A stretch of DNA of 64,000 bases from Clostridia bacterium (GTDB taxonomy: Bacteria > Bacillota > Clostridia > Oscillospirales > CAG-272): positions 28,903 to 92,902 of the forward strand of contig JAGBCA010000065.1 in the NCBI GenBank assembly GCA_017938205.1. Reading direction: 5' to 3'. Made by a program: the position numbers and the translations under genes. Shown in pieces: positions 7,230-63,496 of this stretch. Under the pieces are notes generated by a model. It made no database searches. It was not told the DNA's origin and worked only from the letters and a program-made list of their open reading frames with translations. Each line of letters begins with the position of its first letter. Position 1 is the stretch's first letter.

Positions 7230-8195
7230 ATGAACAAGATGATTGATGAACTCTATTCCATCGGTCTGATTCCCGTAATCAAGATCGAGAATGCCGATGA
7301 TGCGATTCCGCTTGCAAAGGCTTTGATTGACGGTGGCTTGCCCGCCGCAGAGATCACCTTCCGTACCTCCTGTGCGGCAGAGGCGATCAAGAAGATCACC
7401 GAGACCTATCCCGAGATGCTTGTAGGTGCGGGCACGGTGCTGACCACCGAGCAGGTGGATGCCGCGATCGCCGCAGGCTCCAAGTTCCTCGTTTCTCCCG
7501 GTCTGAATCCCAAGGTAACGGCGTATTGCCTTTCCAAAGGCGTTCTGATGCTCCCCGGCTGCTCCAATCCCTCGGACGTGGAGGCGGCTCTGGAGCTTGG
7601 TCTTACCACCGTTAAGTTCTTCCCCGCAGAGGCGGCAGGCGGCCTGAAGATGCTGAAGGCTATGTCCGCGCCCTACGGCCAGCTGAAGTTCATGCCCACC
7701 GGCGGTATCAGCGCCGATAATCTTCTTGAGTACCTCAAGTTCAACAAGATCGTTGCTTGCGGCGGCTCCTTCATGGTCAAGGACGAGCTCGTTAAGGAGA
7801 AGAAGTGGGACGAGATCACCGCGCTGACCAAGAATGCGGTGAAGACCATGCTTGGTCTTGAGTTCCTTCATATGGGTATCAACAACGAGAACGCCGAGGA
7901 GGCTACCAAGGCGGCAAAGCTCTTTGAGATGATGTTCGGTCTTCCCGTGAAGGATGGCAATAAGTCTCTCTTTGCAGGGGATGCCTTTGAGTTTATGAAG
8001 TCGAAGGGCCCCGGCAAGTGCGGTCACATTGCGATCCGCACCAACTTCGTTGACCGCGCAATGGCGTACTTCAAGAGAATGGGCATGGAGTTTGACGAGT
8101 CCACCATCACCTACGATGATAAGACCGGCAAGCCCAAGTTCGTTTATTTCAAGGACGAGATCGCAGGCTTTGCTATCCACCTTCTGCAGAAATAA
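7230..8195 (+). CDS. KDPG/KHG aldolase fused to a VOC (glyoxalase-like) domain
   Basis: A 321-residue two-domain protein. Residues 1-200 are a complete class I KDPG/KHG aldolase that cleaves 2-keto-3-deoxy-6-phosphogluconate or 4-hydroxy-2-oxoglutarate to pyruvate: AEITFRT with Glu41 and Arg45, GAGTVL, Schiff-base Lys129 in TVKFFPAE, and the phosphate loop PTGGI. Residues about 207-321 form one vicinal-oxygen-chelate half (FLHMGINNENAEEA..., GHIAIRTNFVDRAMAYF, GFAIHLLQ). The ATG at 7230 has AAAGGAGA upstream; the longer open frame is untranslated leader. The gene is monocistronic, with a clear promoter and terminator. The VOC part may bind metal or substrate, or make the enzyme multimeric; its role is inferred only. 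Confidence 0.92.
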   Translation: MNKMIDELYSIGLIPVIKIENADDAIPLAKALIDGGLPAAEITFRTSCAAEAIKKITETYPEMLVGAGTVLTTEQVDAAIAAGSKFLVSPGLNPKVTAYCLSKGVLMLPGCSNPSDVEAALELGLTTVKFFPAEAAGGLKMLKAMSAPYGQLKFMPTGGISADNLLEYLKFNKIVACGGSFMVKDELVKEKKWDEITALTKNAVKTMLGLEFLHMGINNENAEEATKAAKLFEMMFGLPVKDGNKSLFAGDAFEFMKSKGPGKCGHIAIRTNFVDRAMAYFKRMGMEFDESTITYDDKTGKPKFVYFKDEIAGFAIHLLQK

Positions 8196-44760: not shown

Positions 44761-44836
44761 TTTGCTTTGTTTTTTTTGCTTGTTTTTTGAAAGCGTTGGT
44801 CCCAAAACGGTTTTTTTGGTTTTCTTCATCCTTTTA

Positions 44837-44865
44837 TTGACAATTATAACAGATAGTGGTATAAT
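44837..44865 (+). promoter_or_regulatory. Promoter of the InlB/GLUG lipoprotein
   Basis: TTGACA (44837-44842) and TATAAT (44860-44865), spacer 17 bp: perfect consensus. Confidence 0.9.
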
Positions 44866-44911
44866 GAATGCATCCCAATTAAATATATTTAAAAAATTTA
44901 GGAGAAAAGGT

Positions 44912-47545
44912 ATGAAAGCGTTTAAGAAAATTGCGTTCGTTGCTCTTTGTGCGTTAACGCTTGCCTGCAGTATGCTTCTGCTTTCCTCTTGCAGTCTGCT
45001 CGGCGGCAGCTTTGACGTCACCTTCATTGCGGACGGAAAGACCTATCAGACGGTGGAGGGGAAGGGCTCGGAGCCGATCGCGCTTCCGGATGCTCCCGAA
45101 AAGAACGGATACGTCTTTGACGGATGGTATCTGGATAACGGTACTTGGCAGAAGCCGTTTGCCGCTGATGCGGTGAAGGCAGATACCTCCGTTTATGCAA
45201 AATTCTCCGCCGTTTCATATACGATCAAGTATGAAGCGATCGGCGGAACGCATAAAAATCCCACGGCTTACACGGTGGAGGATGCGATCACGCTGTCTGC
45301 GGCCAAGCACGAGGGCTATGCGTTTCTCGGCTGGTATGCGGATGCGCATTACACCACGGAGGTAAAGTCCATTGCCAAGGGCTCGACCGGTGATATTACC
45401 CTGTATGCAAAATACGATATTGACGATTATATCGTAAGCTACAATAAGGTGCTTTCGGTGAGAGACAATTCGGACAACGGCATCGCCGATCTCGGCATCG
45501 TTGCAAAGGATAAGCTCGGCAATTCTCTGAAGGCAACGGCCAAGGTGAAATCCGGTACGTATAAGGGCGGAAACACCATTGTATACGAGATCACTCTGAC
45601 GGACGATGCAGGTGTGTACGCAACCTTTGATACGGTTGCAATTCCCGTATATGACGTAAACGATATTGTATTCTCCTATTTTGCTAAAAATTCCACCTTT
45701 ATCAAGCTTTCGAGCAAGGGCGAGGAGTTTGATGCGAATGCAACCGACGCGTTCGGCAAGCCCTGCGAGATCACGGTGGAGCTTCTGGAGGGCTATACGC
45801 TTGCCGGCGGCGAGGTCGTTTCTCTTCAGATCGTGGCAACGGACGCTGCCGGCAACCGCAAGGTCAGCGAGCCGATCCACAGCATACAGGTTTACGATCT
45901 TCCCGTGATCACCTATGACGAGGAATTGCTTCCCGTTCTGGACAATACGGATCTTTCGACGCTTTTCACCGCCGTGGATAGCTTCGGCGCTGTCTTGCCG
46001 TTTGAGATCACGCCCTCAGCGGAGGCGCTTGTCATTGGAGAAAAGGTGATCGTTACCGTATCCGCAACGGATATCATGGGACAGACGACGGTGGAGGAAT
46101 TTGAATTTTCCGTATACGATTCCACGAAGCTGTTCGTTAAGCTTTACGTAAATGATGAGCTTTGGGAGATCGTTTCCATTGACGATGCCGCAAATTACAC
46201 GCTGCCTCTCTTTGAACTGGATGAGGCGTGGGATACCGCGGGATGGTTTGATGCAAGCGGAACCCGTTATACCGATGCCGAGGGTCTTGGCCTCGTGAAC
46301 GTAACCGAAAACAAAAAGCTCTATTACAGCATCATCAAGAGCGGCTATATTCCGATCTTCACCGTGGAGGAGCTGAAGGCCATCACGCCCGACGGAAGCT
46401 ACTATTTGTTTGCGGATCTCGATCTTAACAACGAGGAATGGACACCCGTGGGAACTGCGGAGACTCCGTACTCGGGAGAATTTATCGGTCAGGGACACGC
46501 GATCTCCAATCTCAGGATCACGGAGAACGCGCAATTCATCGGCTTCTTCGGCTACGTCACCGGCGCGATCGAGGGACTTGAGATCAAGAACGTAAATATT
46601 GCAACGACCTTTGATGCGTATTGCTACGTGGGCGCATTGATCGGCTATAACGATCAGGGCACCGTGAAGAGCTGCTCTGCATCGGGCCAGATCATCAATG
46701 CCGCAGGCTACGGCAAGGTGGGCGGCCTGATCGGCTATAATTATCAGGGAAGCGTCGAGGGCTCTGACTCTGTTTGTAAGGTCTCGGCATCTGCCGTATA
46801 CTATTGCTATATCGGCGGCCTGATCGGTGATAGCTATCAAGGCACGGTTACCGATTGCTTTGCAACCGGCGAGATCAAGATCACCCCTACCTGCGATACG
46901 GGCTATGCCGGCGGTCTGATCGGTTATAACAACGAGGGCACAGTCACGAGGTGCCATACGAGCGGTAACGTAAGCGTATCGGCTACGCGCATTGGCTACG
47001 TTGGCGGCTTTGTTGGAAGTAACAGCGGCACGCTGGAAAAATGCTATGCAACCGGAAACGTGACTGCAAGCATCAACTCCTCCACCAACGTAATCATCGG
47101 CTATACGGGCGGTCTGGTCGGCAGAAACCTCTACGGAAGCGTAACGGATTGCTATGCAACCGGAAATGCAAGCGCGAGCGCAAATGCGAGATATTGCTCC
47201 AGTTATTCGGGCGGTCTGATCGGCTTTGATTTTATGGGCAAGATCACGAATTGCTTTGCCGTTGGTAACGTATCGGCACTCTCCTCGTATGAGTCTACCT
47301 ATGGCGGCGGTATTGTAGGCTACAATGACGGCAGCACGATCGAAAACTGCTATTGCAACGCGGCGCAGACGTTTACGATCACGAGAGGCGCCGAGACCAC
47401 ATATGAGCCAACAAATGACGACGGCATCCTTGCGCAGATAGAAAATCTGCAGTCCGAGGAATGGATCAAGGAAAACCTCTGGACGGACGGTGCCGAGGAT
47501 TGGGACTTTACGGGTGCTTATCCTGCGCTTTGCGTGGCTGAATAA
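44912..47545 (+). CDS. Surface lipoprotein with InlB-type and GLUG repeats
   Basis: 877 residues. Seen: signal peptide with lipobox LLSSC (Cys27); two Listeria-Bacteroides/InlB B-type repeats (about 34-170, KNGYVFDGWYLDNG, HEGYAFLGWYADAH); Ig-like modules with repeated VYD endings (about 175-465); another GWFDASGTRYTDAEG module; then a long right-handed beta-type stretch of GLUG-like repeats (about 490-850, YVGALIGYNDQGTVKSC, VGGLIGYNYQGSVEG, YAGGLIGYNNEGTVTRC). Such proteins are cell-surface adhesins or binding proteins. ATG at 44912 with TTAGGAG; the longer frame is leader. It is convergent with the giant Hint protein. Confidence 0.92.
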   Translation: MKAFKKIAFVALCALTLACSMLLLSSCSLLGGSFDVTFIADGKTYQTVEGKGSEPIALPDAPEKNGYVFDGWYLDNGTWQKPFAADAVKADTSVYAKFSAVSYTIKYEAIGGTHKNPTAYTVEDAITLSAAKHEGYAFLGWYADAHYTTEVKSIAKGSTGDITLYAKYDIDDYIVSYNKVLSVRDNSDNGIADLGIVAKDKLGNSLKATAKVKSGTYKGGNTIVYEITLTDDAGVYATFDTVAIPVYDVNDIVFSYFAKNSTFIKLSSKGEEFDANATDAFGKPCEITVELLEGYTLAGGEVVSLQIVATDAAGNRKVSEPIHSIQVYDLPVITYDEELLPVLDNTDLSTLFTAVDSFGAVLPFEITPSAEALVIGEKVIVTVSATDIMGQTTVEEFEFSVYDSTKLFVKLYVNDELWEIVSIDDAANYTLPLFELDEAWDTAGWFDASGTRYTDAEGLGLVNVTENKKLYYSIIKSGYIPIFTVEELKAITPDGSYYLFADLDLNNEEWTPVGTAETPYSGEFIGQGHAISNLRITENAQFIGFFGYVTGAIEGLEIKNVNIATTFDAYCYVGALIGYNDQGTVKSCSASGQIINAAGYGKVGGLIGYNYQGSVEGSDSVCKVSASAVYYCYIGGLIGDSYQGTVTDCFATGEIKITPTCDTGYAGGLIGYNNEGTVTRCHTSGNVSVSATRIGYVGGFVGSNSGTLEKCYATGNVTASINSSTNVIIGYTGGLVGRNLYGSVTDCYATGNASASANARYCSSYSGGLIGFDFMGKITNCFAVGNVSALSSYESTYGGGIVGYNDGSTIENCYCNAAQTFTITRGAETTYEPTNDDGILAQIENLQSEEWIKENLWTDGAEDWDFTGAYPALCVAE

Positions 47546-47703: not shown

Positions 47704-50700
47704 TCACATCGTGATCTCGTCGTAGTAATCGATGATGATCGCTCTGAGCTCATCGATGGTCATCAAGCCCTTTCCGATCGCAACGCTGAAGTAAGGACCG
47801 TTCAGAGCAAGGAACTGCTCGTAGGTGATCAGATCGGCCGCCGCTTCGTAAGGAAGAAGTCCGTACTTCTCAATATCCTTCTGCAGTGCTTCCATGTTGT
47901 ACTGAAGTCCGTCAAACTCAAACAGGTTCAGCACGTGAACGAAGGGAAGTGCGCAGAGCAGATTTTCTGCGAAGTGGTTGAAGCCGCCTGCCGTGGCGAT
48001 CGTGTATGCGGTGCGCGTATCTGCCACGATCTCGTAATCCACGAGCATTACCGTGCTCATCTCGCCGTCAACCAGAGCGGCAAAGTGCGTGCCGAGGAAT
48101 TCGTGCACGTTCACAGCACCGATGTTCACGTATTTCTCGTGATCCAGCGAGTAGAACGCGTGCAGATCCGCAATGCCGATCACCGTTCCGTCGGAGAATT
48201 TCAGATAAACGATCTCGTCAAAGGTCGCGGTGTGGATCGCGGTAACGGGAGATGCGCGCAGGCTGCCGGTCTCAAAGCTCCAAACGAGAAGCATATCACC
48301 GATCTTCACGTCCTCGGCTCTCTTGTACGTTCCGTCTGCCATCAGCACGGGCGTTTCGTCAATGATACAACCGCCGCCGTCACTGCTGCTGTTATTTGTA
48401 TCCGCAAGGTCAGCGATGAACTGATCGGATTCGGCAAATGCTTCAACGTATCCGCCGCCTCTCTGGTTGTTGTAGGTGTAGTAAACTCTGTAGGAGAATA
48501 CCGCGCCGTCCGTCAGGAGAGAGCGGCTGATGCTGATTGTAAATGCATTGTTGCTACCGCCGAGATACGAGTTGTAATCCGCTGCGGAAACGATGCTGCC
48601 GTCCGATGCGAGGATCTCGTAGCGGAGGATGCGGACCTCGTTCTCCAGGTATACGTCCGAGGGCGTCAGTCTGATGTTGTAGGTGTAATAATAGTAGCTG
48701 CTGTCGCTTCCTGCGCCGGCTCTCTCGGAGGTCACGTTCAGTGTGGGAGTGGGAACGGAGAAGAGCGTGCTGTCGGTTCGGATGCCGCAATGCATCTTTG
48801 CCTGATAGGTGCCCGCGTAATCGCTCAGCGTGTAGGTATAATCGATATATACCGTGTAATATGCGTTGGCGATCAGGCCGGTGAGATATACCCATCCGTC
48901 CTCGGTGTTCAGCGCGGAGCTTGCCGCAGAGGCAGGATAGTAAACGTAGGCGTTGTACGTCTCACCAAGCGCATCCAGCACCGTTACACCGGTGATGCTG
49001 TAGCTTGCAAATGCATCGCGCTTCACGAGAATTTCCGCAACCGTCTGTCCCGTCACGATCTCGGCTGCCACGTTGGAGGCACTCTTCACCTTGAAGGATC
49101 TCGTGGTCGTCGTAGTGCCGCTCGTGTTTTCGAGCTCGTATTCAAAGGTAACGATCACCTCGTATTCCACCTCATCGTCAATGCCGGTGAAGGCGTAGGT
49201 TCCCGTGCCGGTGATGCTTTCGATGCTATCCACCTTCGTTCTGTATTTCAGAAGGTCGATGGACTTGATCGTTACACCCGTGGAGAGATTCTGATTGATG
49301 TTGAAGGAGAGCGTGCCTGCCGATACGTTCACGTTCGTCAGCGTCAGAAGGTCGATCACGTGGGGGTAGAGGTTAACGATCGAAACGTCACTCCAGTTCC
49401 TTAACGAATTGCCGTTTGCATCGGTATACTGCGTGCCGGTGCCGTTTTGGCCGGAATACCAGCCGAGGAAGGCGTATCCACCGCTTCCGAGAGAAAGGAT
49501 GGGAAGCTTGTAGGACGTATCGTAGGTGATGCTCACGCGGTCGTTGTTGACGGGCGTGGAGTAGGGGTATTCAACGCCGTTCACAGCGTTTTCAAGGATC
49601 ACGCCGTACGTACCAACCTCCCATTTTGCATACAGCGTTATGCCATCGGGACGGTTTGCAGGGATCACGGTCATGATGTTGACAAACTCGGGCTCGGAAT
49701 ACCAGCCAAGGAAGGCGTATCCGCGCTTCGTGGGTGTCTTGAGCTTCACGCCGCCGTCAATGGTATACTGCGTGGGTGCATCGGATGGGTTCGTACCGCC
49801 GTCCAGCACATACGTGATATTGAACTTCACGATGTCGTAAACAGCCGTGAGCGTTCGGTTGGAAAGAATGTTGGTGTATGCGCCGTCCCAGCCCTTGAAG
49901 GTGTGGTATTCGTCAATATACATCTCCTCGTCTGTGGGAGGCGTTGCATCCTCGAAGGCCGTTACGGTCTCGGTCTTCAGAATGGCACCGCCTGCATCCT
50001 TGAAGATCACCTTGTAGGTCGCGATCTCCCACTGGGCGTAAACGTTCACGTCCTCGTGCGGCATCGTACCCACGGTGAAGCGGATCGCGTTCTCTGCATC
50101 GGCCGTCCAGCGGATGAAGTTGTAGCCGGTCTTTGCGGGCGTGGAGAATGCGGGGATCTTGTCAAGATACTTCACCGAGAGGGTGCTGATCGTAGAACCG
50201 TCGGAAATCAGGTTGATCTTATAGGTCTTCGGCTCAAAGCGCGGGAAAATGCTCATATCCGAGGTCACGGGCTGGCTGAAATCAACGAGCGTGCCACCGT
50301 TCTTTTCGGTAAAGAAGCCTAAGAAGTTGTAGTATTCGTGCGTCGGAGCCTCAGGCGCGGTAATCAGATCTCCGTAATACAGATTCTGCGGCGGGATGAC
50401 GATATCGGGCTCGATCGTTCCGTCCGGATACACGTAGAAGGGCTCGTAAACGAAGGTTACGGTGCAGGGTCTCTTCGGTCCGTTAGCAATACGGATGAAG
50501 AAGTCCAGCGTGCGCTCCGTCGTCGTAGTGATACGGAAACGGTAATCGTAATCCGAGTAAATGTCGCTGCGCTTGAAGAAGTCCTTGTGGATGGTAAGCG
50601 TATCAAAGTCCTCGTCGTTTGCGGTCAGCGTAAAGAGCTCTGCGGGGATCTTCTCAAGATCGCTGCCGAGGAAGGTCACGTAGGAAAGACTGCTGAGCGG

Positions 50701-53700
50701 CTCGCCAAACAGCTCAAGAGAGATCGGCAGATCCGCATCGGAAAGATAATCGTATACGATCGGGCTTTCCTGGTTGAGCTTCGGCTCGTGCGAGTCCTTC
50801 ACGGTGATCGTGAAGGGCAGAGACCCGTCGGTCGTTCTTATGCTGTAGTGATATTCGCCCACGGGAAGTCTGTAAAGGTAGAGATAGCTGATATAATAGG
50901 TATCAACCGTTCTCTCGTAATCCTCGTAGGTAATGTCACCGCCGGTGATGGTCTGATTCAGCATCACGTCGGCGCCGTCAAGCGATTCATCGTAGAGATT
51001 TACGTGTACCTGCAGATCGTATTTCGCAGTAACGGAGGGATCGAGACTGTATTCGTAAGCCGCCTTGTCAAAGGTAAATTCGGTTTTGTCAAGATACGGC
51101 TTTCTGGAGTCGTAAACCTCAATGTACTTTGTAAAGCTATGTCCGTTTGCGGAGATCCTCACCGTATAGGTTCCGTAAGAAATGCTCTTGAAGCCGGAAA
51201 GCATCATACCGTCTCTCGTGAAGAAGCCGATCGAAAGATCGTCGCACAGCACGGACTCGATGCGTCCCTCATAAAGCGTCCAGGGAACGAATACCTCTGT
51301 GATGTCGTCGGCAAACAGACTCTTATCCACGCGCGTCACGCTCTCAAAATACAGACCCGTATCGTGCACAACAACGGTAACGGTGATCGTATCGTCGCAA
51401 TCGTCAAAGCCGATCGTAAGAACGTGCTCGCCGATGGAGAGCGTTGAAAGCAGGGAATCAAAGATCGTGATCGTCTTTGCGCCGGAGGAGAAGCCGCTGC
51501 CGCGGCGGATTCCGTCGCAGGTAATGGATTTCACAGCCGAATCGTAAAGGATCGCATCGAACTGCTTGCTTCCGCCCGTAAATCTGTCATAGCGGATCAC
51601 AACGTCCTCTTCGAGATAGGGGGATCTTGAATCGTATACGCTCACGGTGAAGGTATCGCTCTTTCCGAGATAGCCGTGAAGAGTGAAGCTGTGATCTCCG
51701 TAGCCGAAGTCGGCAAGATACTCTGCCTTGAGGATAAATCCGGTGTCCGTAAGCTCGTAGTGTCTGCCCTCAACCAGCGTGCTGTAGCCTCTGGTGATAG
51801 CGCCGAAGGCATTGTTTTCACCGTAGCTTACGGTGAATGCAAGATCTGTGGGATTTGCATAGTCGGAGTATGCCTTATCGGGCGTTACCGAGGGAGTAGA
51901 TGCCGAAACGGGCGTTTCCTCGGGAACGTAGCTGGGTGCGTATTCGGTTTCGGGCGGGATAACTACCTTGGGCTTTTCGTAGCAGAGAACCTTGATCACA
52001 AACTCGTTTGCATCGGTAGTGACCGTGAATTCGAGCGTATCGCCCGCCTTAGGTGCAAGGCTCTGCAGGAAGGCTGCGGAAATGCTGATTACCTTCACGT
52101 TTGCATCGCCCGCATAGGGCCTGGGAAGATAATCGCCTACGCCGATGCCGTTACCGCCAAGAGAAACGAACTCGTGGTTGTAAAGTGCAATGGCAAACTG
52201 TGCGGACATGGGGAAGTCGATATTGAACTTCACCTGCGTATCCAAGGGCTCGGGAAGTCTTTGGTCGGAAATGTTGAGTCCGATCTCAAAGGTCTCGGTG
52301 CCGATCGTAAGCACGATCGTATGCACGCCGACGGAAAGCTTTTTCGCAATGGTATCCGCAGTGATCACGATATAGCCGCCGCGATAATCCACCGTCATAT
52401 CATCTCTGAACTGCGTGAGATAATAGGGAATATTCACACCGTCCACGGTGAGCCCGAGGATCGGATTGTCGTAAAGCTCTGCGCGGATCGCAATATCGGA
52501 TGCGTTTGCCTGCATATGATACGAGATGAAATCGGTGTTTGCCGCAGGAGTTCTCGTGTCGGATACCCGTATGGTGAGGCTATCGGTTTCAAGATGGTAC
52601 GTATCACCGGAGAGAACGTAGGAATCCACGGTGATGTTCACGTTGCCGTAAGGAACGAAGTATTCAACGAAATCGTCAAAAACGGTGATCGTAGAGGTGC
52701 TGAAATCGTAAGCATATTCCCACTCCTTGAGAAGAATGCCGTTGATCCTTATGTTGAAGTACTTTGCATCGTTCATCACGTACTTCACGGTGAAGTCCGT
52801 GCCGCTGCCAAAGAGATATTCTCTGTCGCAGGAAACCTCAGGTGCGAGCGTTTCGATCACGGTGACCTTCAAGGGAACGTCGCCCTCAAGGGTTGTCATG
52901 CTGAATTCCCATACGCCGGGATCAAGATTCAGAAGGAAGGACTCCGAAATGATGATCTTCTTCTGATCCACGGTGTAATCGTGCTGGCCGATGCCGTTAC
53001 CGCTGACTGCGGTTACGTAGCCCTCGTCATAAAGCTCGAAATAGAATACAACGTTCTGCGGATAGGATTTGTCAAAGGTCTTGCTGAAGACGTCGTCCTG
53101 CGGCGTGCGGCTGTCCATCACGGTAACGGGGAAGATCAGCTTTTCGTCCTCGTTGATGTCGTGCGTGATATTGGCCGTTCCGTAGGGAAGCGTGATCAGA
53201 TAAGAGGGATAGAACGTAACGGTGGTAATGCCATCGCCCTTATTCGTCAGCTCGTAGTGCTTGCCCTTCGTGAGTCCCTTGATGGAAAGCGTATCGTCAT
53301 AGAGCTTCACGTCAAAGGAGATCTGCGTGGGATTGTTTTTGTCAAATACGGGCGTTTCGGTGGTTACGAGCTCGGGAGATCTCGAATCCACGATGCGGAT
53401 GCTGATCGGAATGTATCCCGCATCGGTAATAACGTAGCCCGTATGCGTTCCGTAGCTGAACTCGCTCAGCCGATCGGCAGGGATGGTCACGCTTGCGGCC
53501 TTCGAATCGATGAGGCAGGAGAAGATGCCGGGATGCTCCTCAAATACCTTGTTCATCTTTTCTGCCGCATCCTCGATCTTGGCAAAATAGTCGGTCTCGT
53601 CCTTGAGAAGCTTTCGGATGAGATCGTACTGTGCGCGGATATCGGAGATCTCCTTGGAAACGGCTTCGATCTCTGCATCGCTGAGCACGGAGAGATAGAT

Positions 53701-56700
53701 GGCGGTCATGTTATGATCCGAGCCCATCGTGTAAGTGATATCCTCGGGCGCGCCCTTGTCAAATACGTTGTTCTGCTTGCCCTCAAGATACGGCGATTCG
53801 ATCAGCGTTTTTACGTCGATCGTATAAAGAACCTTGGAATAGCCAACGCTGTGCTCGTAGAAGAAGAGCTTATCCTTGAGGATCGCGGATGCAAGGGTGT
53901 CGAGATCCTTGGTCGTTACGTCGATCATGGGAGAAACAACGGGATACGCCGCCTTACCGTCGGTCTTAACGATGCTTAACTTTTCGTCCGCAACGTCGAT
54001 GAAGTAGGACATTCCGTCCTCGTGGGTCACGCGGTTCGCCGTGTATTTGTCGGCAACGTCGCAAAGCTTGTAATACTTGCCGTGTCCGTCAACGATGGTG
54101 TAAAGTCCCATTACGTAAGGATTCTTTGCGTTCTTATCGGGATTGTCCTTCGTAACGAAGATGCCGAGAGGCGTAACGCCGATGGAGTATACGTTATCAT
54201 CCTGCGTGATGCCGCCGTCGGGGTAGCAGATGAATGCATCTCTGATATCACCGTCGTCGTCCTTGGTGTAGTATGCAACGATCTCGTCGGTGTAAGAGAT
54301 CTTGTACCAGTATGCGTGCAGATCTGCGCTGTATCTCGTGTATCCAACGCCATCGTAAACGAAGTACGCCGCTTCACCGCTTTCCTTTTCTGCGTAAATA
54401 ACGTCCGCACCAAGGCTGTAGTCATATCGCATGGTGATGGCATTCCAGCCGTTCGGCAGCGTGAGATACGTGCGTGCCTTGCCTTCAAAGTCAATACGAA
54501 GATAGCTCTTGATAACGTTTTCGCTGCCCTCTTCGGTGTAGAAGATGTGCGTTCTGTCCGAGCCGACAACACGGCTGATACCGGGGATCACGGTCCTCTC
54601 GGTTCCCGCCGTCAGACCCACTCTGCGCAGGTTCTTGCCGCTCTGAACGTAAATGTAGTAGTTGTCAATATCCACGATCTCGGCATCGCCGATATCGCTC
54701 AGGGGAGAGGAAACGGAATAGAGGCTGTCGAGCTTCGTCTTTCTCAGGATGCCGTCAAGATCCTTATAGTAGAAGAACTCTCCGTCGGCTGCGGAAACGG
54801 GCGTTACAAAATGGATCGCCTCGTCACGGAAGGCCTGCTTCGGCGTTCCGCCCTTGAAATACTCCCAATCCGCAAGGATCAGGCTTCCGTCCATCACCTT
54901 GATCGCGAAGCCGTCCAGGGGCAGGAAGGAGAAGTTCAGCTTGATATCCAGATGGTATTCAAAGGTCACCTGGCCGAAGAATCTGTAGGCGCCGGCAACG
55001 TCTGCCGAAAATTCCGCCTGATCGTCGGTATGATCCTTTTTCACGCTCACCTTACCCGAAAGATCGGACTCAAGGTTGAAAAGATCCAGATTCAGTCTTG
55101 TGACCGAGATCTCCTCCTTGCTGTTTCTGATAACGAGGGATGCGGAGGTTCTTAAGAAGTTGATCTCAACATCGGTCTCTCCCTCGATGGTGAACTCACG
55201 GTGCGATTCGTTGACCGTTCGTTCAAACTGTCCCTGGAACACGGGCTTTCCGTCCTCCACGAGCTGAATGCCCACGAAGTAGTCTGCATCCTCGGTGGTG
55301 GCGAAGTTCGCTGCCGCCGCAATTGCGCCCACGGCATCAAAGGCCACGGAAAGCTCCACGGCGAGAAGTCCGAAGGTGCCGGGGATCGGGATCTGGATAA
55401 GATCCCACTTGTAGATCGGCTCGTCAAGTCCGGTGAGCTCAAGGAAGAGAAGGTTCAGCGTGGAGCGTCTGAGCTGAGGATCCACGAATTCTCCGTCAAG
55501 AAGAATGTTAACCGCCGTTGCGGTCGCCGTTTCAAATTCCAGGCCGAACGCAACGTCCTCCATCGCGAGAGGGAACGCCGTGTCGATCTCCGCATAGAAT
55601 ACGGGATTGTGGAGGATCACCTCGCATTCGATCTCGATTTTCGTATCGCCGTCTATGTTCTTGTTATTGATCTTAAGCACCTCAAGCTTCGTATTCTTGC
55701 TGAGGTACTTGGCAATGTCGATCTTAACGTAGAACTTGATATAGTCCTTATCAATGTAGATCATTTTGCCGCTGCTCTCGGAGGCAACGCCCTCAGCACC
55801 GGGATCGAGAACGAAGCTTCCCGCATACTTGATCAGCGCGCCGTTCTCGTAAATCGGCTTTTTATCGGCAAAATCGATCTCAGTCTTGGTCGGTGCACTT
55901 GTGACGTATCGGATCACCTTGCTGTAAAGGGAGTCCTTCACCTGCGCCTCATCACCGTCTGCCTTCACGGAAACGAGATACTCTCCGATATCCGTCGGCA
56001 GAGTATAGGTGTTGGTGGCGGAATCAACGGATATAACAGTATCGTTGATGTTGATGCTGTAGCCCTTCGCCTTGTCAACGCTGGTCCAGGAGAGCACGCC
56101 GCCGGAAATGGAGATGGAGGGTGCGGGCAGAACCTCGGTCTTCAGCGGAACGGTAAGCATGAAATGCACGGGATCCAAAAGCTCCTGCACCGGATCGAAA
56201 ACTACCATGTATTCGTATCCGGGGATCATGATCTGATCGGGATTCCTCCAAGCAAAGGAGCCGAGCACCTCGGCCTGGCCGCCGATGAGAGCGATCTGAG
56301 AAAGCGGCGTATTATAATCTGCGGGCGCGGCAACGGGGTAGGATAGGATCTTAACGGTTTCGGAATAGTATTCCGCATAGATCACCGCATCCCCCTTGAC
56401 CACGTATGCAAAGTTGTTCTGATTGCTCACCAGAATACCGTCTGCATACCAACCGGCAAAGGTGTATCCCTTGATCTCGTTTGCAACAAGCGTCACCGTG
56501 GAAAGGTATTTGTAGTCGCCGGAATTTTTGTCCGTATAGGCCGCATTCATGGATCTCACCTGAATGGTAAAGACGTCCTCGGTGAAATGCGCCGTAACGG
56601 TGGTGTCCTCGTCGGGCATGATATATGTAATTTTTTCCTCGGTGCCAACGAGCATGGAGCCGCTGTACCAGCCAACGAAAACGTAGCCGAAATTCGGCTC

Positions 56701-56925
56701 GGCTTCGAGTGTGATCGCATCACCCTCAACGCCTGCCTTCGCGCTCGCCGTGGCCGTACCCATTTTCTCATCGTTTACGGAAACCGTGAGAGAGTGCGAC
56801 TCGCCCTTTCCTAAAATGCCATTGATCCCATCCTCGATGGCACCGGGCCAGAAATGGTTGACGAGCAATACGCCGCCCACCGTCAGCACCAGCAGAACGG
56901 AAATAATGATGACCGCTTTTTTCAT
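47704..56925 (-). CDS. Giant multidomain surface protein with C-terminal Hint (hedgehog/intein) domain
   Basis: 3073 residues. N-terminal membrane anchor (4-24, no lipobox); InlB-type repeats (about 45-185, FGYVFVGWYSG, GYTFAGWYADG); fibronectin-like segment (about 270-345); unrecognised region with long beta runs (about 350-700); a beta-propeller-like part with IYVQSGKNLRRVG-type strands (about 710-1085); a helical spacer (about 1085-1135); about ten Ig-like modules of the CBM_X2 kind (about 1150-2145), several ending VxDSRTP; InlB repeats again (about 2150-2515); Fn3-like modules (to about 2840). A Ser/Gly linker precedes the Hint domain from Cys2853, with GGGCIIDETPVLMADG and GDMLLVWSFETG, to about 2995, then a 78-residue tail. 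ATG at 56925 with ATAGGAG. Confidence 0.93.
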   Translation of the reverse strand: MKKAVIIISVLLVLTVGGVLLVNHFWPGAIEDGINGILGKGESHSLTVSVNDEKMGTATASAKAGVEGDAITLEAEPNFGYVFVGWYSGSMLVGTEEKITYIMPDEDTTVTAHFTEDVFTIQVRSMNAAYTDKNSGDYKYLSTVTLVANEIKGYTFAGWYADGILVSNQNNFAYVVKGDAVIYAEYYSETVKILSYPVAAPADYNTPLSQIALIGGQAEVLGSFAWRNPDQIMIPGYEYMVVFDPVQELLDPVHFMLTVPLKTEVLPAPSISISGGVLSWTSVDKAKGYSININDTVISVDSATNTYTLPTDIGEYLVSVKADGDEAQVKDSLYSKVIRYVTSAPTKTEIDFADKKPIYENGALIKYAGSFVLDPGAEGVASESSGKMIYIDKDYIKFYVKIDIAKYLSKNTKLEVLKINNKNIDGDTKIEIECEVILHNPVFYAEIDTAFPLAMEDVAFGLEFETATATAVNILLDGEFVDPQLRRSTLNLLFLELTGLDEPIYKWDLIQIPIPGTFGLLAVELSVAFDAVGAIAAAANFATTEDADYFVGIQLVEDGKPVFQGQFERTVNESHREFTIEGETDVEINFLRTSASLVIRNSKEEISVTRLNLDLFNLESDLSGKVSVKKDHTDDQAEFSADVAGAYRFFGQVTFEYHLDIKLNFSFLPLDGFAIKVMDGSLILADWEYFKGGTPKQAFRDEAIHFVTPVSAADGEFFYYKDLDGILRKTKLDSLYSVSSPLSDIGDAEIVDIDNYYIYVQSGKNLRRVGLTAGTERTVIPGISRVVGSDRTHIFYTEEGSENVIKSYLRIDFEGKARTYLTLPNGWNAITMRYDYSLGADVIYAEKESGEAAYFVYDGVGYTRYSADLHAYWYKISYTDEIVAYYTKDDDGDIRDAFICYPDGGITQDDNVYSIGVTPLGIFVTKDNPDKNAKNPYVMGLYTIVDGHGKYYKLCDVADKYTANRVTHEDGMSYFIDVADEKLSIVKTDGKAAYPVVSPMIDVTTKDLDTLASAILKDKLFFYEHSVGYSKVLYTIDVKTLIESPYLEGKQNNVFDKGAPEDITYTMGSDHNMTAIYLSVLSDAEIEAVSKEISDIRAQYDLIRKLLKDETDYFAKIEDAAEKMNKVFEEHPGIFSCLIDSKAASVTIPADRLSEFSYGTHTGYVITDAGYIPISIRIVDSRSPELVTTETPVFDKNNPTQISFDVKLYDDTLSIKGLTKGKHYELTNKGDGITTVTFYPSYLITLPYGTANITHDINEDEKLIFPVTVMDSRTPQDDVFSKTFDKSYPQNVVFYFELYDEGYVTAVSGNGIGQHDYTVDQKKIIISESFLLNLDPGVWEFSMTTLEGDVPLKVTVIETLAPEVSCDREYLFGSGTDFTVKYVMNDAKYFNIRINGILLKEWEYAYDFSTSTITVFDDFVEYFVPYGNVNITVDSYVLSGDTYHLETDSLTIRVSDTRTPAANTDFISYHMQANASDIAIRAELYDNPILGLTVDGVNIPYYLTQFRDDMTVDYRGGYIVITADTIAKKLSVGVHTIVLTIGTETFEIGLNISDQRLPEPLDTQVKFNIDFPMSAQFAIALYNHEFVSLGGNGIGVGDYLPRPYAGDANVKVISISAAFLQSLAPKAGDTLEFTVTTDANEFVIKVLCYEKPKVVIPPETEYAPSYVPEETPVSASTPSVTPDKAYSDYANPTDLAFTVSYGENNAFGAITRGYSTLVEGRHYELTDTGFILKAEYLADFGYGDHSFTLHGYLGKSDTFTVSVYDSRSPYLEEDVVIRYDRFTGGSKQFDAILYDSAVKSITCDGIRRGSGFSSGAKTITIFDSLLSTLSIGEHVLTIGFDDCDDTITVTVVVHDTGLYFESVTRVDKSLFADDITEVFVPWTLYEGRIESVLCDDLSIGFFTRDGMMLSGFKSISYGTYTVRISANGHSFTKYIEVYDSRKPYLDKTEFTFDKAAYEYSLDPSVTAKYDLQVHVNLYDESLDGADVMLNQTITGGDITYEDYERTVDTYYISYLYLYRLPVGEYHYSIRTTDGSLPFTITVKDSHEPKLNQESPIVYDYLSDADLPISLELFGEPLSSLSYVTFLGSDLEKIPAELFTLTANDEDFDTLTIHKDFFKRSDIYSDYDYRFRITTTTERTLDFFIRIANGPKRPCTVTFVYEPFYVYPDGTIEPDIVIPPQNLYYGDLITAPEAPTHEYYNFLGFFTEKNGGTLVDFSQPVTSDMSIFPRFEPKTYKINLISDGSTISTLSVKYLDKIPAFSTPAKTGYNFIRWTADAENAIRFTVGTMPHEDVNVYAQWEIATYKVIFKDAGGAILKTETVTAFEDATPPTDEEMYIDEYHTFKGWDGAYTNILSNRTLTAVYDIVKFNITYVLDGGTNPSDAPTQYTIDGGVKLKTPTKRGYAFLGWYSEPEFVNIMTVIPANRPDGITLYAKWEVGTYGVILENAVNGVEYPYSTPVNNDRVSITYDTSYKLPILSLGSGGYAFLGWYSGQNGTGTQYTDANGNSLRNWSDVSIVNLYPHVIDLLTLTNVNVSAGTLSFNINQNLSTGVTIKSIDLLKYRTKVDSIESITGTGTYAFTGIDDEVEYEVIVTFEYELENTSGTTTTTRSFKVKSASNVAAEIVTGQTVAEILVKRDAFASYSITGVTVLDALGETYNAYVYYPASAASSALNTEDGWVYLTGLIANAYYTVYIDYTYTLSDYAGTYQAKMHCGIRTDSTLFSVPTPTLNVTSERAGAGSDSSYYYYTYNIRLTPSDVYLENEVRILRYEILASDGSIVSAADYNSYLGGSNNAFTISISRSLLTDGAVFSYRVYYTYNNQRGGGYVEAFAESDQFIADLADTNNSSSDGGGCIIDETPVLMADGTYKRAEDVKIGDMLLVWSFETGSLRASPVTAIHTATFDEIVYLKFSDGTVIGIADLHAFYSLDHEKYVNIGAVNVHEFLGTHFAALVDGEMSTVMLVDYEIVADTRTAYTIATAGGFNHFAENLLCALPFVHVLNLFEFDGLQYNMEALQKDIEKYGLLPYEAAADLITYEQFLALNGPYFSVAIGKGLMTIDELRAIIIDYYDEITM
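47941..48369 (-). other. Hint domain coding segment
   Basis: Codons 2853-2995 of the giant protein. Block A: CIIDETPVLMADG with the nucleophile Cys right after GGG, and VKIGDMLLVW. Block B-like: SDGTVIGIADLHAFY with the His, the usual Thr changed. Block F-like: YTIATAGGFNHFAEN. The terminal His-Asn needed for C-terminal splicing is absent (LLCALPF). Confidence 0.88.
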
Positions 56926-60550: not shown

Positions 60551-60581
60551 TTTGGTATTGGTGCTTTGCATCAATACCAAA
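60551..60581 (+). other. Hairpin in the leader of the CxxC lipoprotein
   Basis: TTTGGTATTG (60551-60560) pairs with CAATACCAAA (60572-60581). No T run follows, so it is more likely an mRNA leader structure than a terminator. Confidence 0.55.
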
Positions 60582-60616
60582 CAAACTCTAATAACCCCAA
60601 AAGGAAGGTAACCTAT

Positions 60617-63496
60617 ATGAAAAAATTAACACTCATTCTACTCTCGGTCTTGATGATCGTAACCCTCGCGGCTTGCGGTAGCAAAAAATGTGAGCAGCAT
60701 GTTTACGATGACTGTGCAGATATAGAGTGCAACGAATGTGGTGAAAAAAGAGATTCGATGCATTCTTGGAAGGAAGCAGATTGTATAACAGCAAAAACCT
60801 GCTCCGTTTGCGGTAAAACCGAGGGCGAATCTCTCGGACACGAATGGACAACGCCCGACGTTGATCTGTGCGAGGTTCAATCCACCTGTTCAAGATGCGG
60901 TGCAACCGACGGAGAAAACAAGGAACATACTCCCGAAAATGATGATAACGACTGCTCAACCGCCCTTAATTGCGGTGTTTGCGGAAAAGAAATTCTGGCG
61001 GCAGGCGAGCATTCCCCCGAAAAGGATGACGGCAATTGCACAACTGCTATCACTTGTAGCTTATGCGGAACGATAACCACACCTGCAAAGGATAGTCATA
61101 CTGGCGGTACTGCTACCTGCACCGAAAAAGCGGTTTGCGCAGTATGTAGCACAGCATACGGCACAGTTGATGCAAACAATCACATAGACGAAAACATCGA
61201 CCATATTTGTGACCGTGAGTGTGGAAAGACGGATATCGGCACACACGCTGACTCCGCAGAGGATAATGACCACGTTTGCGACTACGGTTGCGGAGTAACT
61301 CTTGAAGAGCATAAGGGCGGCACCGCAACCTGTGCGGCACAGAAAGTATGTACGATCTGCGGAAACGGCTATGGCAATCTTGCTCCCGAAAACCATGACT
61401 TTGGTAGCGGCAACACCTGCATCTGCGGTTCTAAAATCGAGTTCACAGGATTTATTTATATCAGTGATGAAATCTATACCTATGATGAAAGCGCCAATAC
61501 TTATACGGTTATCATTCCTCCCAATTACTATGGTGCAGATGCAAAGTTTCATATTACCGGCAAGAATTTGGAGTATCTTGAATCAGATAATGCGCTTCTG
61601 AAGGTAAAGGAAAATCACTCCCTTGTGGGAGAGTATGATTTTTCGCTTGAAGACTTCCTAAGCGCTGGTTTTGAAGTTGGTTGGGGCAGCATGCAAGATG
61701 GAAGTTGGCTTGAATACCAATACTCCAACGATGGCGGTATCACATGGAGTAAAGCAGTCAGAGCCGAAGTGAAACAGTCTTATTATGTCACTGTCAATGC
61801 TTCTGAAAACGGCTCCGTTACTGCTAAGGAATACGCTGTCGCAGGCGAAACCGTTACTCTGAATGTATCCGCTGACAAGGGCTATATGCTGGATACCCTG
61901 TCCGTCACCGATGCAAGCGGCAACACCATAGTTGTCGAGAATAATCAGTTCACTATGCCTGCATCCGCTGTCACCGTCAACGCAACTTTTGCTGTTTGCG
62001 ACCACAAGGATAGCCGACATGAAACTGCTACCGACAACGACGACGGCACCCATAGCTTTACCTGCACCGTCTGCGGCGTCACCGGAACCGAAAATCACAC
62101 CATCGAAAACCACCTTTGTACCGCTTGCGGTGCGATGGAGATCATAGTCAGCTTTGATGCAGGCGACTTTGAATGGAAAACCGGCGACACGCTCTACTTC
62201 TGTCGTGTTTCTCGTGACAATCAATGGGAGGAATATTGCTTCATCGCAACAGTTGCCGAGGATGGCACGGTCACTTGGACTCCCGACAAGCCGCTCTACT
62301 GGGATGGTACAGGCGAGCATCGGTTGTTCGTTAGCTATCCGTGTACCGCTGTAGGTTGGGATGACTTTATGATTCCCACCGACCAAAGCGATGTCGATAA
62401 ACTCAAGGAAGCAGACTGCATCAACGCACGGTGGGTAGGCACACCTACAACCAATGTTATCGAGTTCGAACTGAAGCACCGCATGGCAAAGATTACGGTT
62501 AATTATTCGATTGCATCTCAGTTTGATTCGGATGCACCTGTTATCGCAGAAATATATAGCAATGCAAAGTATTGCACATTCAGTGATGCCGACGGGTTGC
62601 CTATTATCACCTCTGTGGGACAGTACGATGCTTGGATAATTCCTTATCATAACGACAATCAGTTCACCGCTTACGTTGCGCCCGGCGAGTACAATACTGA
62701 CGGAATGTTTAAGTTCTATATTGGTGACTCAGAAGTGCAAATTGAAATAAACAATCCCGGAGCTGTAACACTTGAAGAAGGCGGCGAGTATACCTTTGAT
62801 GTTAAGGTAGGACAGGATGTGATTACAATCGCGGAAGTATCAATGGGTGACATCGATAGTCCTTTCGGTGACGGTTGGAACAGTGAAACAGATCTAAAAG
62901 CAATCGGTACACAAGCTGAGGGCAAGACCTATTGGGAGGATGGTGATCAGATCATAGTAACCTTTACCTCTCCGTGGTTCGGCACACAGTATGGAACGCT
63001 TACCTATGACGGCAACGTTGGTTCGTGGTCAACGGACGTGCTTTTCTCGTACCTCGAAGGTGAAATACCTACCGTTAGCGCAATATATGCTCCGTGCTAT
63101 GAGGTAGTGGACGGTAATATGCAGTTGAAGGACGGCATGCAGCTTGGAATGACGGAGTATATCTCGGCAGCTTGCAGTATCACGGATGGAACACTCAATA
63201 TCAGCTTTAAGGGCGCAACCCGTAATTACAGCCGCCTGCGTATCGTTGGTCTGGCAAATCAAACGCTGACCGTTATCACGACAGGTTTCACTCCTGCAGG
63301 TGCAACGGAAGAAGCGACCAAGTCGTACACTCTCACCACCGACGGGGATGGTAATGCCGATCTCTACGGTATGTTTGCCGAGGGAGCAACGATATTAGTG
63401 CAATTAGATGAAACTGAGCTTGCACAGTATAGCTTTTACGAATCAACTGCAAACGGCATGAGCTATGCGTTGGATGCTTTGGATGCGCAATTATAA
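60617..63496 (+). CDS. Lipoprotein with CxxC repeats and fimbrillin-like C-terminal domains
   Basis: 959 residues. Seen: signal peptide with lipobox VTLAAC (Cys about 20); a Cys-rich region (about 20-275) of some ten CxxCG-type knuckles (CNECG, CSVCG, CSRCG, CGVCG, CSLCG, CAVCS, CTICG); a beta region; an InlB-like divergent repeat (about 395-460, NGSVTAKEYAVAGETVTLNV); another CxxC pair; then two modules (about 512-735 and 755-959) resembling the Bacteroidetes fimbrillin/Mfa family: WKTGDTLYF, FVSYPCTA, VIEFELKHRMAKITVNY, YDAWIIPY, and WEDGDQIIV. Start ATG 60617 with AAGGAAGG. By eye it is more AT-rich than its neighbours. A surface adhesin role is inferred. Confidence 0.85.
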   Translation: MKKLTLILLSVLMIVTLAACGSKKCEQHVYDDCADIECNECGEKRDSMHSWKEADCITAKTCSVCGKTEGESLGHEWTTPDVDLCEVQSTCSRCGATDGENKEHTPENDDNDCSTALNCGVCGKEILAAGEHSPEKDDGNCTTAITCSLCGTITTPAKDSHTGGTATCTEKAVCAVCSTAYGTVDANNHIDENIDHICDRECGKTDIGTHADSAEDNDHVCDYGCGVTLEEHKGGTATCAAQKVCTICGNGYGNLAPENHDFGSGNTCICGSKIEFTGFIYISDEIYTYDESANTYTVIIPPNYYGADAKFHITGKNLEYLESDNALLKVKENHSLVGEYDFSLEDFLSAGFEVGWGSMQDGSWLEYQYSNDGGITWSKAVRAEVKQSYYVTVNASENGSVTAKEYAVAGETVTLNVSADKGYMLDTLSVTDASGNTIVVENNQFTMPASAVTVNATFAVCDHKDSRHETATDNDDGTHSFTCTVCGVTGTENHTIENHLCTACGAMEIIVSFDAGDFEWKTGDTLYFCRVSRDNQWEEYCFIATVAEDGTVTWTPDKPLYWDGTGEHRLFVSYPCTAVGWDDFMIPTDQSDVDKLKEADCINARWVGTPTTNVIEFELKHRMAKITVNYSIASQFDSDAPVIAEIYSNAKYCTFSDADGLPIITSVGQYDAWIIPYHNDNQFTAYVAPGEYNTDGMFKFYIGDSEVQIEINNPGAVTLEEGGEYTFDVKVGQDVITIAEVSMGDIDSPFGDGWNSETDLKAIGTQAEGKTYWEDGDQIIVTFTSPWFGTQYGTLTYDGNVGSWSTDVLFSYLEGEIPTVSAIYAPCYEVVDGNMQLKDGMQLGMTEYISAACSITDGTLNISFKGATRNYSRLRIVGLANQTLTVITTGFTPAGATEEATKSYTLTTDGDGNADLYGMFAEGATILVQLDETELAQYSFYESTANGMSYALDALDAQL

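What the first reader, a model, noticed from the sequence alone, without database searches (positions are those of the whole stretch)
47941..48400. Hint domain at the outer end of a giant surface protein, without the C-terminal splicing residues
Cys2853 follows a Ser/Gly linker and starts a Hint domain with block A, a block B His and a block F, but the final His-Asn is missing and no extein-like Cys/Ser/Thr follows. Cleavage could therefore occur only at the N side, as in hedgehog proteins. The big outer part would be left as a thioester that could be passed to water or to an amine or hydroxyl on a wall, host or partner molecule. A 78-residue tail of unknown fold follows and would be released with the Hint domain.
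Basis: partly seen in the sequence, partly recalled or inferred. Interest (0 to 1): 0.78.

Follow-up and report, generated by a model that had tools for sequence, protein, structure and literature searches.

The report
Hedgehog-like self-cutting tag in gut bacteria
The end of this giant bacterial protein carries a two-part module, a predicted self-cutting domain plus a conserved tail, that is built like the part of animal Hedgehog proteins that cuts itself off and puts cholesterol in its place, and the same module ends other, unrelated secreted proteins of Clostridia.

Summary
Cys2853 opens a Hint domain with a block B His and a block F, without terminal His-Asn; a 77-78 aa tail follows. It belongs to a family. 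In 112 unique complete modules from the fetched loci, Cys1 and block B His are present in 112, block B Thr and His-Asn in 0; 109 end the protein or lie within 60 residues of its end. Of 13 tail matches in 197 genomes, 11 carry the whole Hint and two lie in apparently broken genes; Hint and tail distances correlate at 0.80 (largest permutation 0.25). Heads differ: repeats, camelysin-like, pilin-like, a subtilase, a hydrolase, leucine-rich repeats. Position 46 is Asp in 79 of 112, where Hedgehog has its base for cholesterol; the window has His. Best reading: a Hog-like C-terminal tag that forms a thioester at Cys1 and hands the head to water or to an acceptor chosen by the tail. Cleavage, acceptor and fold are untested. 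Against: no block B Thr anywhere, no match over the Hedgehog Pfam cut-off in 79 relatives, and likeness to inteins too.

The parts
47704..56925 (-). gene of the giant secreted or membrane-tethered protein, 3073 aa, ending in the Hint-tail module
56842..56925 (-). hydrophobic N-terminus (about 28 residues), signal anchor or signal peptide, no lipobox seen by eye
   Evidence: sequence; inference
56578..56787 (-). divergent InlB B-repeat (PF18998), best of 3 stretches
   Evidence: 6.2e-22 for the whole protein
51643..51876 (-). CBM_X2-type domain (PF03442), best of 4 stretches
   Evidence: 1.1e-14 for the whole protein
49624..49824 (-). Listeria-Bacteroides repeat (PF09479), best of 6 stretches
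   Evidence: 9.7e-44 for the whole protein
48370..48390 (-). Ser/Asp/Gly linker just before the Cys
   Evidence: among 112 modules the residue at -1 is Ser in 47 and Gly in 27
47938..48369 (-). Hint domain, module residues 1-144
48367..48369 (-). Cys2853 = module Cys1, predicted nucleophile
   Evidence: 112 of 112 modules
48232..48234 (-). His46 (counted from Cys1 without gaps), at or beside the position of Hedgehog Asp303 (Hint D46)
48160..48162 (-). block B His (module His70, His72 in L007 numbering); Ala67 stands where the usual Thr would be
   Evidence: 112 of 112 His, 0 of 112 Thr
47941..48009 (-). block F, without terminal His-Asn
47926..47928 (-). near-invariant Asn just after block F (module Asn148, Asn154 in L007 numbering), role unknown
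   Evidence: Asn in 107 of 112
47707..47937 (-). conserved 77-residue tail, possibly an adduct-recognition-like part of the module
   Evidence: role inferred

Best explanation
The last 221 residues form one Hog-like C-terminal autoprocessing module, Hint plus a conserved tail, shared by secreted proteins of Clostridia. Steps: (1) the head is exported through Sec or related N-termini (inferred from sequence); (2) Cys1, helped by the block B His, shifts the bond before it into a thioester (inferred from invariant residues); (3) the missing His-Asn means no splicing and no classical C-side cleavage (seen in the sequence, function inferred); (4) the thioester is resolved at the N side by water or by an acceptor (inferred). 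I think an acceptor hydroxyl or amine brought in by the tail, with Asp46 or a nearby His as base, somewhat more likely than plain water in the typical members, because in the intact genes seen here the tail always comes with this Hint and is conserved with it. Tail and Hint leave together. The result would be a secreted protein trimmed at its C-terminus, or attached by it to a wall, lipid or partner molecule without a sortase.
For: Cys1 112/112, block B His 112/112, His-Asn 0/112. 102 of 112 modules end within 15 residues of the stop and 7 more within 60. The residue before Cys is Ser in 47 and Gly in 27 of 112. Tail-only and Hint-only searches of the same 197 genomes: 13 tail matches in 12 genomes, of which 11 carry the complete Hint; the other two (G167 with part of the Hint, G076 with only its end) look like broken genes. 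Hint-tail distance correlation 0.80, largest of 500 permutations 0.25. The window copy keeps its tail better (38% mean identity to the other 111) than its Hint (30%). The family's conserved Asp46 aligns without a gap to Hedgehog D46 in 1at0 and is Asp in 79/112; Hedgehog D303 (= D46) is needed for full cholesterol transfer but not for DTT cleavage (PMC9163320, passages). Heads differ widely. Sortase genes are rarer in carriers, 9/22 against 17/21 in non-carriers, Fisher p=0.012.
Against: Block B Thr is absent in 112/112 (Ile 88, Val 14, others 10), and in Hedgehog T326A greatly lowers both reactions (passages). No cleavage evidence exists. Among solved structures the profile scores 6y75/6tmm better than Hedgehog; PF01079 passes its cut-off in 0 of 79 relatives and finds nothing in the window's own genome; NCBIfam intein models match too: PRK07773.1 55 of 84, intein_Nterm 12 of 84. 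Kinship to Hog specifically is therefore unproven. The window copy lacks Asp46 and the block F His. 8 of 112 have neither Asp nor His in the loop, and my loop criterion for the 25 others without D46 is loose. In the phage contig L095 the module ends the gene after portal, so export and wall attachment cannot be the general role. Two modules in G1069 are internal. The sortase contrast is not corrected for kinship or completeness, and 9 carriers do have sortases. No fold could be computed.
Confidence: 0.55

Rival explanations
1. Plain hydrolytic autocleavage. The module cuts itself off with water as acceptor; the tail is only a folding or structural partner that stabilises the Hint and keeps it inactive until export.
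For: No partner gene is general: among 748 flanking ORFs of the 79 loci, many with short flanks, the largest cluster covered 13 loci (pilin-like) and nine clusters reached 4 loci or more (names by eye). The L095 phage member beside portal has no obvious acceptor. The block B Thr is lost.
Against: Asp46 is kept in 79/112 at the place of the Hedgehog acceptor base. The tail is about as conserved as the Hint (mean identity 47% and 49%), more than I would expect of a passive helper.
Confidence: 0.25
2. Capture of amines on partners: the thioester is used to cross-link the head to neighbouring proteins or host glycoproteins, as the FrpC self-processing module can do through an anhydride.
For: Some heads are fibre-like: camelysin-like (L034, L190), pilin-like (L020), repeat proteins. 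A bacterial self-processing module that ligates to a target protein is known (PMC7846742, abstract in a search listing).
Against: A subtilase and an alpha/beta hydrolase also carry it. No direct sign of an amine acceptor.
Confidence: 0.12
3. A non-cleaving, structural Hint fold: block B Thr is gone and the domain only serves as a stable cap or binding domain.
For: Thr 0/112 and His-Asn 0/112.
Against: Cys1 and block B His invariant in 112/112 at a mean Hint identity of 49%; the only two copies met without an intact Hint N-part look like broken genes.
Confidence: 0.15

Closest known systems
Hog domain of Hedgehog and Hedgehog-related proteins (Hint + SRR/ARR; PDB 1at0 for the Hint)
   Same: C-terminal in secreted proteins; Cys1; block B His at the same spacing (residue 72); Asp at residue 46 in 79 of 112; no His-Asn; a second conserved part after the Hint (97 residues in human SHH by PMC7906309, passages; about 79 here)
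   Different: no block B Thr; tail not shown to resemble the SRR; bacterial heads; match to 1at0 only 5e-4, over residues 1-86; PF01079 under its cut-off in the relatives searched
6y75/6tmm Hint, which I recall as a Tetrahymena BIL; the chain is labelled arginine ADP-ribosyltransferase
   Same: best profile match among solved structures (1.4e-6 over residues 2-144)
   Different: no conserved tail known to me; not compared further
BIL domains, types A and B
   Same: Hints in variable bacterial proteins; type B is said to cleave at the N side and to lack the C-terminal intein motif (PMC7765530, passages)
   Different: type A ends in His-Asn; type B is also said to cleave at the C side in an atypical way; no dedicated tail is mentioned in the passages seen
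Bacterial C-terminal Hint group of Buerglin 2008 (PMC2362128, section 12 and passages)
   Same: Hint at the C-terminus, some with signal peptides, length roughly like Hog, set apart there from inteins, Hog and BIL
   Different: its members share similar heads with two conserved Cys; named species include Myxococcus, Reinekea and Serratia; its sequences were not held here, so not compared
Pretoxin Hint (PF07591)
   Same: window copy matches at 3.4e-5
   Different: below the gathering score; of nine other Hints that reached block B, from this and other searches, eight keep the Thr, and three (L107, L135, L171) end in His-Asn; here the tail is conserved
Sortase substrates (LPXTG) and the FrpC self-processing module (NeissLock)
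   Same: possible purpose: an activated C-terminus passed to an acceptor outside the cell
   Different: comparison of function only; no shared sequence was tested

Membership tests
Hog (Hedgehog C-terminal domain) | Nucleophilic Cys at Hint residue 1 | tested here: met
   112/112, (presence only, not reactivity)
Hog (Hedgehog C-terminal domain) | TxxH in block B | tested here: not met
   His 112/112 but Thr 0/112
Hog (Hedgehog C-terminal domain) | Asp or His near residue 46 for acceptor activation | tested here: inconclusive
   Asp46 79/112; His in the loop 19, Asp in the loop 6, neither 8; window His46; the loop criterion is loose
Hog (Hedgehog C-terminal domain) | SRR/ARR after the Hint | tested here: inconclusive
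   a conserved tail of similar length is present, but likeness to the SRR was not tested
Hog (Hedgehog C-terminal domain) | Autocleavage with ester transfer to a sterol or other adduct | not testable with these tools
   needs biochemistry
Hog (Hedgehog C-terminal domain) | Pfam PF01079 over its cut-off | tested here: not met
   0 of 79 genomes over the cut-off, 7 with a weaker match, none in the window's own genome; 23 of 84 members match at up to 0.01, best 1.3e-7
Hog (Hedgehog C-terminal domain) | Closest sequence kin is Hog | tested here: inconclusive
   PF01079 is the most frequent Pfam match, but 6y75 beats 1at0 and intein models match 55 of 84
Intein | Terminal His-Asn plus +1 Cys/Ser/Thr | tested here: not met
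   His-Asn 0/112
BIL type A | C-terminal His-Asn | tested here: not met
   0/112
BIL type B | Intein motifs except the C-terminal one | tested here: inconclusive
   Cys1, block B His and block F present; Thr absent; no type B profile was at hand
Pfam PT-HINT (PF07591) | Score over gathering cut-off | tested here: not met
   24.6 against 27.7 bits for the window's module; 2 of 84 members match at all at up to 0.01

The most novel reading that the evidence does not exclude
A bacterial counterpart of the Hedgehog Hog domain: a self-acting C-terminal tag in Clostridia that esterifies or amidates secreted proteins to an unknown acceptor chosen by its own tail domain, serving as a sortase-free attachment system and offering a model for how Hog arose from bacterial Hints.
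Probability: 0.33. Interest if true: 0.9.

Novelty: new variant of a known kind. Interest (0 to 1): 0.7.

Why it matters
If the module works as proposed, bacteria own a one-piece protein modification device built like the one that puts cholesterol on Hedgehog. It would give a secretion tag that needs no sortase, a new place to look for the acceptor chemistry of gut Clostridia, and a direct test of the question, left open by Buerglin in 2008 (PMC2362128, conclusion passage), of where Hog domains come from. Small N-cleaving Hints with their own acceptor domain would also be useful for making C-terminal adducts of proteins.

Tried and rejected
Intein: rejected, no His-Asn, also not in the two internal copies of G1069. 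Pretoxin Hint with a toxin tail: rejected, because the tail is conserved together with the Hint; that toxin tails vary is recalled. Chance resemblance: rejected by the family. A general partner gene: searched in the flanks of 79 loci, none found. Clustering the heads by summed BLAST pieces put 62 of 74 into one cluster; I think repeats inflate this and did not use it, but it does not show independent heads. Plasmids and GenBank phages: no match at 1e-5. C-side cleavage at the near-invariant Asn after block F: nothing supports it beyond the conservation. Literature: nine searches ran and none of the listed titles or abstract starts describes this Clostridia family; one listed paper on Clostridium thermocellum names Hint domains (PMC4236516) and was not opened. 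The library holds only open-licence papers, so this is weak evidence of absence. Papers opened, passages only: PMC2362128 (also its section 12), PMC9163320, PMC7765530, PMC7906309.

Full report
What is there. The minus-strand ORF 47704..56925 encodes a 3073-residue protein with a hydrophobic N-terminus, InlB-type and Listeria-Bacteroides repeats and CBM_X2-type domains. Its last 221 residues start with Cys2853 after a Ser/Asp/Gly linker. Alone, this stretch gives only weak matches: PT-HINT 3.4e-5 and Hom_end_hint 7.9e-4 in Pfam, both under the cut-offs, an intein-containing radical SAM model in NCBIfam at 2.4e-5, far under its cut-off, and one intein-domain chain, 8w20, at 7e-4 in the PDB.

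It is a family. The window's genome holds a second copy, 40% identical, at the end of a 1929-residue protein whose N-terminus matches camelysin at the Pfam cut-off. The single-sequence search gave 12 of 197 genomes of the order (of its 14 rows, L014 looks unrelated by eye). With the 84-row profile the raw tallies were 18 of 394 in the order, 11 of 291 in the class and 2 of 398 in the phylum. Three of those genomes match as other Hints: G819 and G568, which end in His-Asn, and G612, which matches over the first 68 positions only. I therefore count 17 of 394, 10 of 291 and 1 of 398, the window's own genome counted in each; two of the 17 (G167, G076) look like broken genes. A PF01079 search of 79 relatives later turned up further members of the family in the same genus (G1057, G1069, G1077, G1083, G1090). 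In GTDB contigs 366 stretches matched the patterns and 234 encode a relative; the best 80 were kept as 79 loci, so the sample leans to close relatives of the query's first row. Most record titles there are MAGs labelled Clostridia, Clostridiales or Oscillospiraceae, many from ruminant guts; one named species is Pumilibacter intestinalis, class Clostridia. Labels such as Corallococcus, Anaeroplasma and Saccharibacteria on a few records may be errors. Twelve IMG/VR contigs also match, eight of them only over part of the module. Some genomes have two or three copies, partly in tandem (G840, G889, G933; L015, L030, L035).

Invariant features. From all loci fetched by then I collected unique modules with E below 1e-20 and a match from profile position 1 to at least 200: 112, of which 6 are viral. 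Left out were one contig-end fragment that has the Cys (L098), one gene without the Hint N-part, present as four loci (L012, L123, L145, L163), and one too short (L124). Since a match from position 1 was required, I listed what this dropped among matches up to 1e-10: no complete module without the Cys appeared. Cys1 112/112; block B His 112/112; the Thr of TxxH 0/112; Gly95 110; Ser or Thr at 131 110; block F His 88; Asn154 107; His-Asn 0. The residue before Cys is Ser in 47 and Gly in 27. By stop position, 102 modules are C-terminal, 7 have 16-60 further residues, 2 are internal and 1 has no stop in its locus.

Hint and tail are one unit. I split the alignment and searched the same 197 genomes of the order with each half. 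The tail gave 13 matches in 12 genomes. The Hint half gave 12 matches below 1e-20 in 11 of these genomes, one of them partial (G167), and four weak ones near 1e-3 in other genomes. So 11 of 13 tails sit in complete modules. The other two look like broken genes: in G076 a SipW-type head ends out of frame with a stretch that holds only the end of the Hint and the tail, and in G167 the frame starts after a stop and lacks the Hint N-part. Pairwise identities of Hint and tail correlate at 0.80, against 0.25 for the largest of 500 permutations; common descent alone would produce this, so it shows joint inheritance, not contact. Mean identity is 49% in the Hint and 47% in the tail; the window copy averages 30% and 38%. 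Helical periodicity of the consensus tail is strongest in its last 15 residues or so, which fits an amphipathic helix there; the fold is not known.

Likeness to Hedgehog. Scanning 84 members, PF01079 (the Hedgehog Hint family) is the commonest Pfam match, 23 of 84 at up to 0.01, best 1.3e-7. But in 79 relatives it passed its cut-off in none and missed the window's own genome. The profile matches 1at0 at 5e-4, without gaps through residue 46, and the family's conserved Asp falls on Hedgehog D46, that is D303 (numbering from PMC9163320 passages). There D303 is needed for full cholesterol transfer but not for DTT cleavage, and is described as not present in inteins. Here it is Asp in 79 of 112; 19 have a His and 6 an Asp within the same eight-residue loop; 8 have neither. 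The loop test is loose: by a rough estimate in my head about half of random loops would pass. A review says that an active-site Asp or His for cholesterol activation marks Hog Hints (PMC7765530, passages). Against a special Hog kinship: 6y75/6tmm score better than Hedgehog, and NCBIfam intein models match 55 of 84 (PRK07773.1, best 2.4e-6) and 12 of 84 (intein_Nterm, best 3e-7). Of nine other Hints that reached block B, eight keep the Thr, and L107, L135 and L171 end in His-Asn, so both losses set this family apart.

What it is attached to. By crude rules on 59 of the 79 loci (those with a closed N-terminus and enough head), 24 have an AxA site after the hydrophobic stretch, 7 a SipW-type motif, 2 a pilin motif, 26 fit none of these, and none a lipobox; 5 of the 59 show no strongly hydrophobic stretch. 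Pfam on chosen heads: prepilin methylation motif (L020), camelysin (L034; L190 at the cut-off), subtilase (L046), alpha/beta hydrolase (L064), BspA leucine-rich repeats (L068), Listeria-Bacteroides repeats (L058, L068; L046 under the cut-off), a phenolic acid decarboxylase match in L019 that I cannot place; L015, L044, L048 and L092 gave none. Signal-peptidase-like genes, named by eye, lie near L028, L034, L037 and L071. Such a spread of heads on one conserved C-terminus is what a sorting or processing tag looks like.

Sortases. I scanned 22 of the 26 carrier genomes known at that point and 21 non-carriers taken from earlier tables, many of them among the most complete genomes. Sortase PF04203 was found in 9 of 22 and 17 of 21 (Fisher p=0.012); within the window's family 0 of 4 and 8 of 11 (p=0.026). 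Several carriers are less complete, three share a genus, and kinship was not corrected for, so this is a lead only.

Odd members. In G1069 a frame of 2472 residues, open at the end of the stretch read, holds two complete modules, both internal, each after a GGGI(Y/A) coil that looks like a beta-helix and followed by more such sequence (fold by eye). In the viral contig L095 the module ends the gene that follows terminase and portal genes (L094, L096 and L097 were not scanned for context). L100 carries a collagen-like stretch under the Pfam cut-off that matches PHROG tail-fibre families, and a more distant Hint. These suggest that the module is not tied to Sec export.

Mechanism and limits. Shown by sequence: the module, its invariants, the missing residues, its place and its spread. 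Inferred: N-S acyl shift at Cys1, resolution at the N side, acceptor use by the tail with residue 46 as base. The loss of Thr in all 112 is the main argument against full Hedgehog-like chemistry. The window copy is an outlier, with His46 and without the block F His, so it should not be the only one tested. No structure could be predicted.

Novelty. Hint domains, N-cleaving BILs and Hog are known, and bacterial proteins with C-terminal Hints that are neither intein, Hog nor BIL were reported in 2008 (PMC2362128, section 12). What seems new, since no model in Pfam or NCBIfam names it and nine literature searches listed no paper on it, is a clostridial family in which a Hint without block B Thr and without His-Asn, mostly with a Hedgehog-like Asp46, is tied to its own conserved tail and caps different secreted proteins.

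Noticed in passing
L189 (G1069:C27:100-9500), protein residues 340-552 and 1788-1999 of the frame read: Two complete Hint-tail modules inside one giant repeat protein, as if inserted, without His-Asn.
   Followed up: partly
L095 8378..10681: Phage gene directly after portal ends in the Hint-tail module (40% identical to the query); terminase genes lie just upstream.
   Followed up: partly
L100 7946..10651, also L099, L101: Viral-contig proteins with a distant Hint and a shorter tail that keeps the Asn after block F; L100 has a collagen-like stretch, L101 YadA-head repeats.
   Followed up: partly
module Asn148 (window 47926..47928): Asn just after block F is Asn in 107 of 112 modules; reason unknown, a displaced C-side cleavage Asn cannot be excluded.
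   Followed up: partly
L012/L123 (G167) and L124 (G076): Two apparently broken relatives that kept the tail but lost the Hint N-part.
   Followed up: partly
window 44762..47545 (+) and 60566..63496 (+): Two further repeat proteins near the gene: GLUG plus Listeria-Bacteroides repeats, and a fimbrillin-like domain with an InlB-type repeat.
   Followed up: no
L041 6762..7289 and 7552..8055, L044 5784..8112, L060 6303..6827: A cluster of small upstream genes; the one printed (L041 6762) looks like a lipoprotein with a GWLTKDDL stretch that resembles the second half of the tail by eye.
   Followed up: no
L019 5018..10681: A weakly explained Pfam match to phenolic acid decarboxylase (1.5e-8) inside the head of a module-bearing protein.
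   Followed up: no
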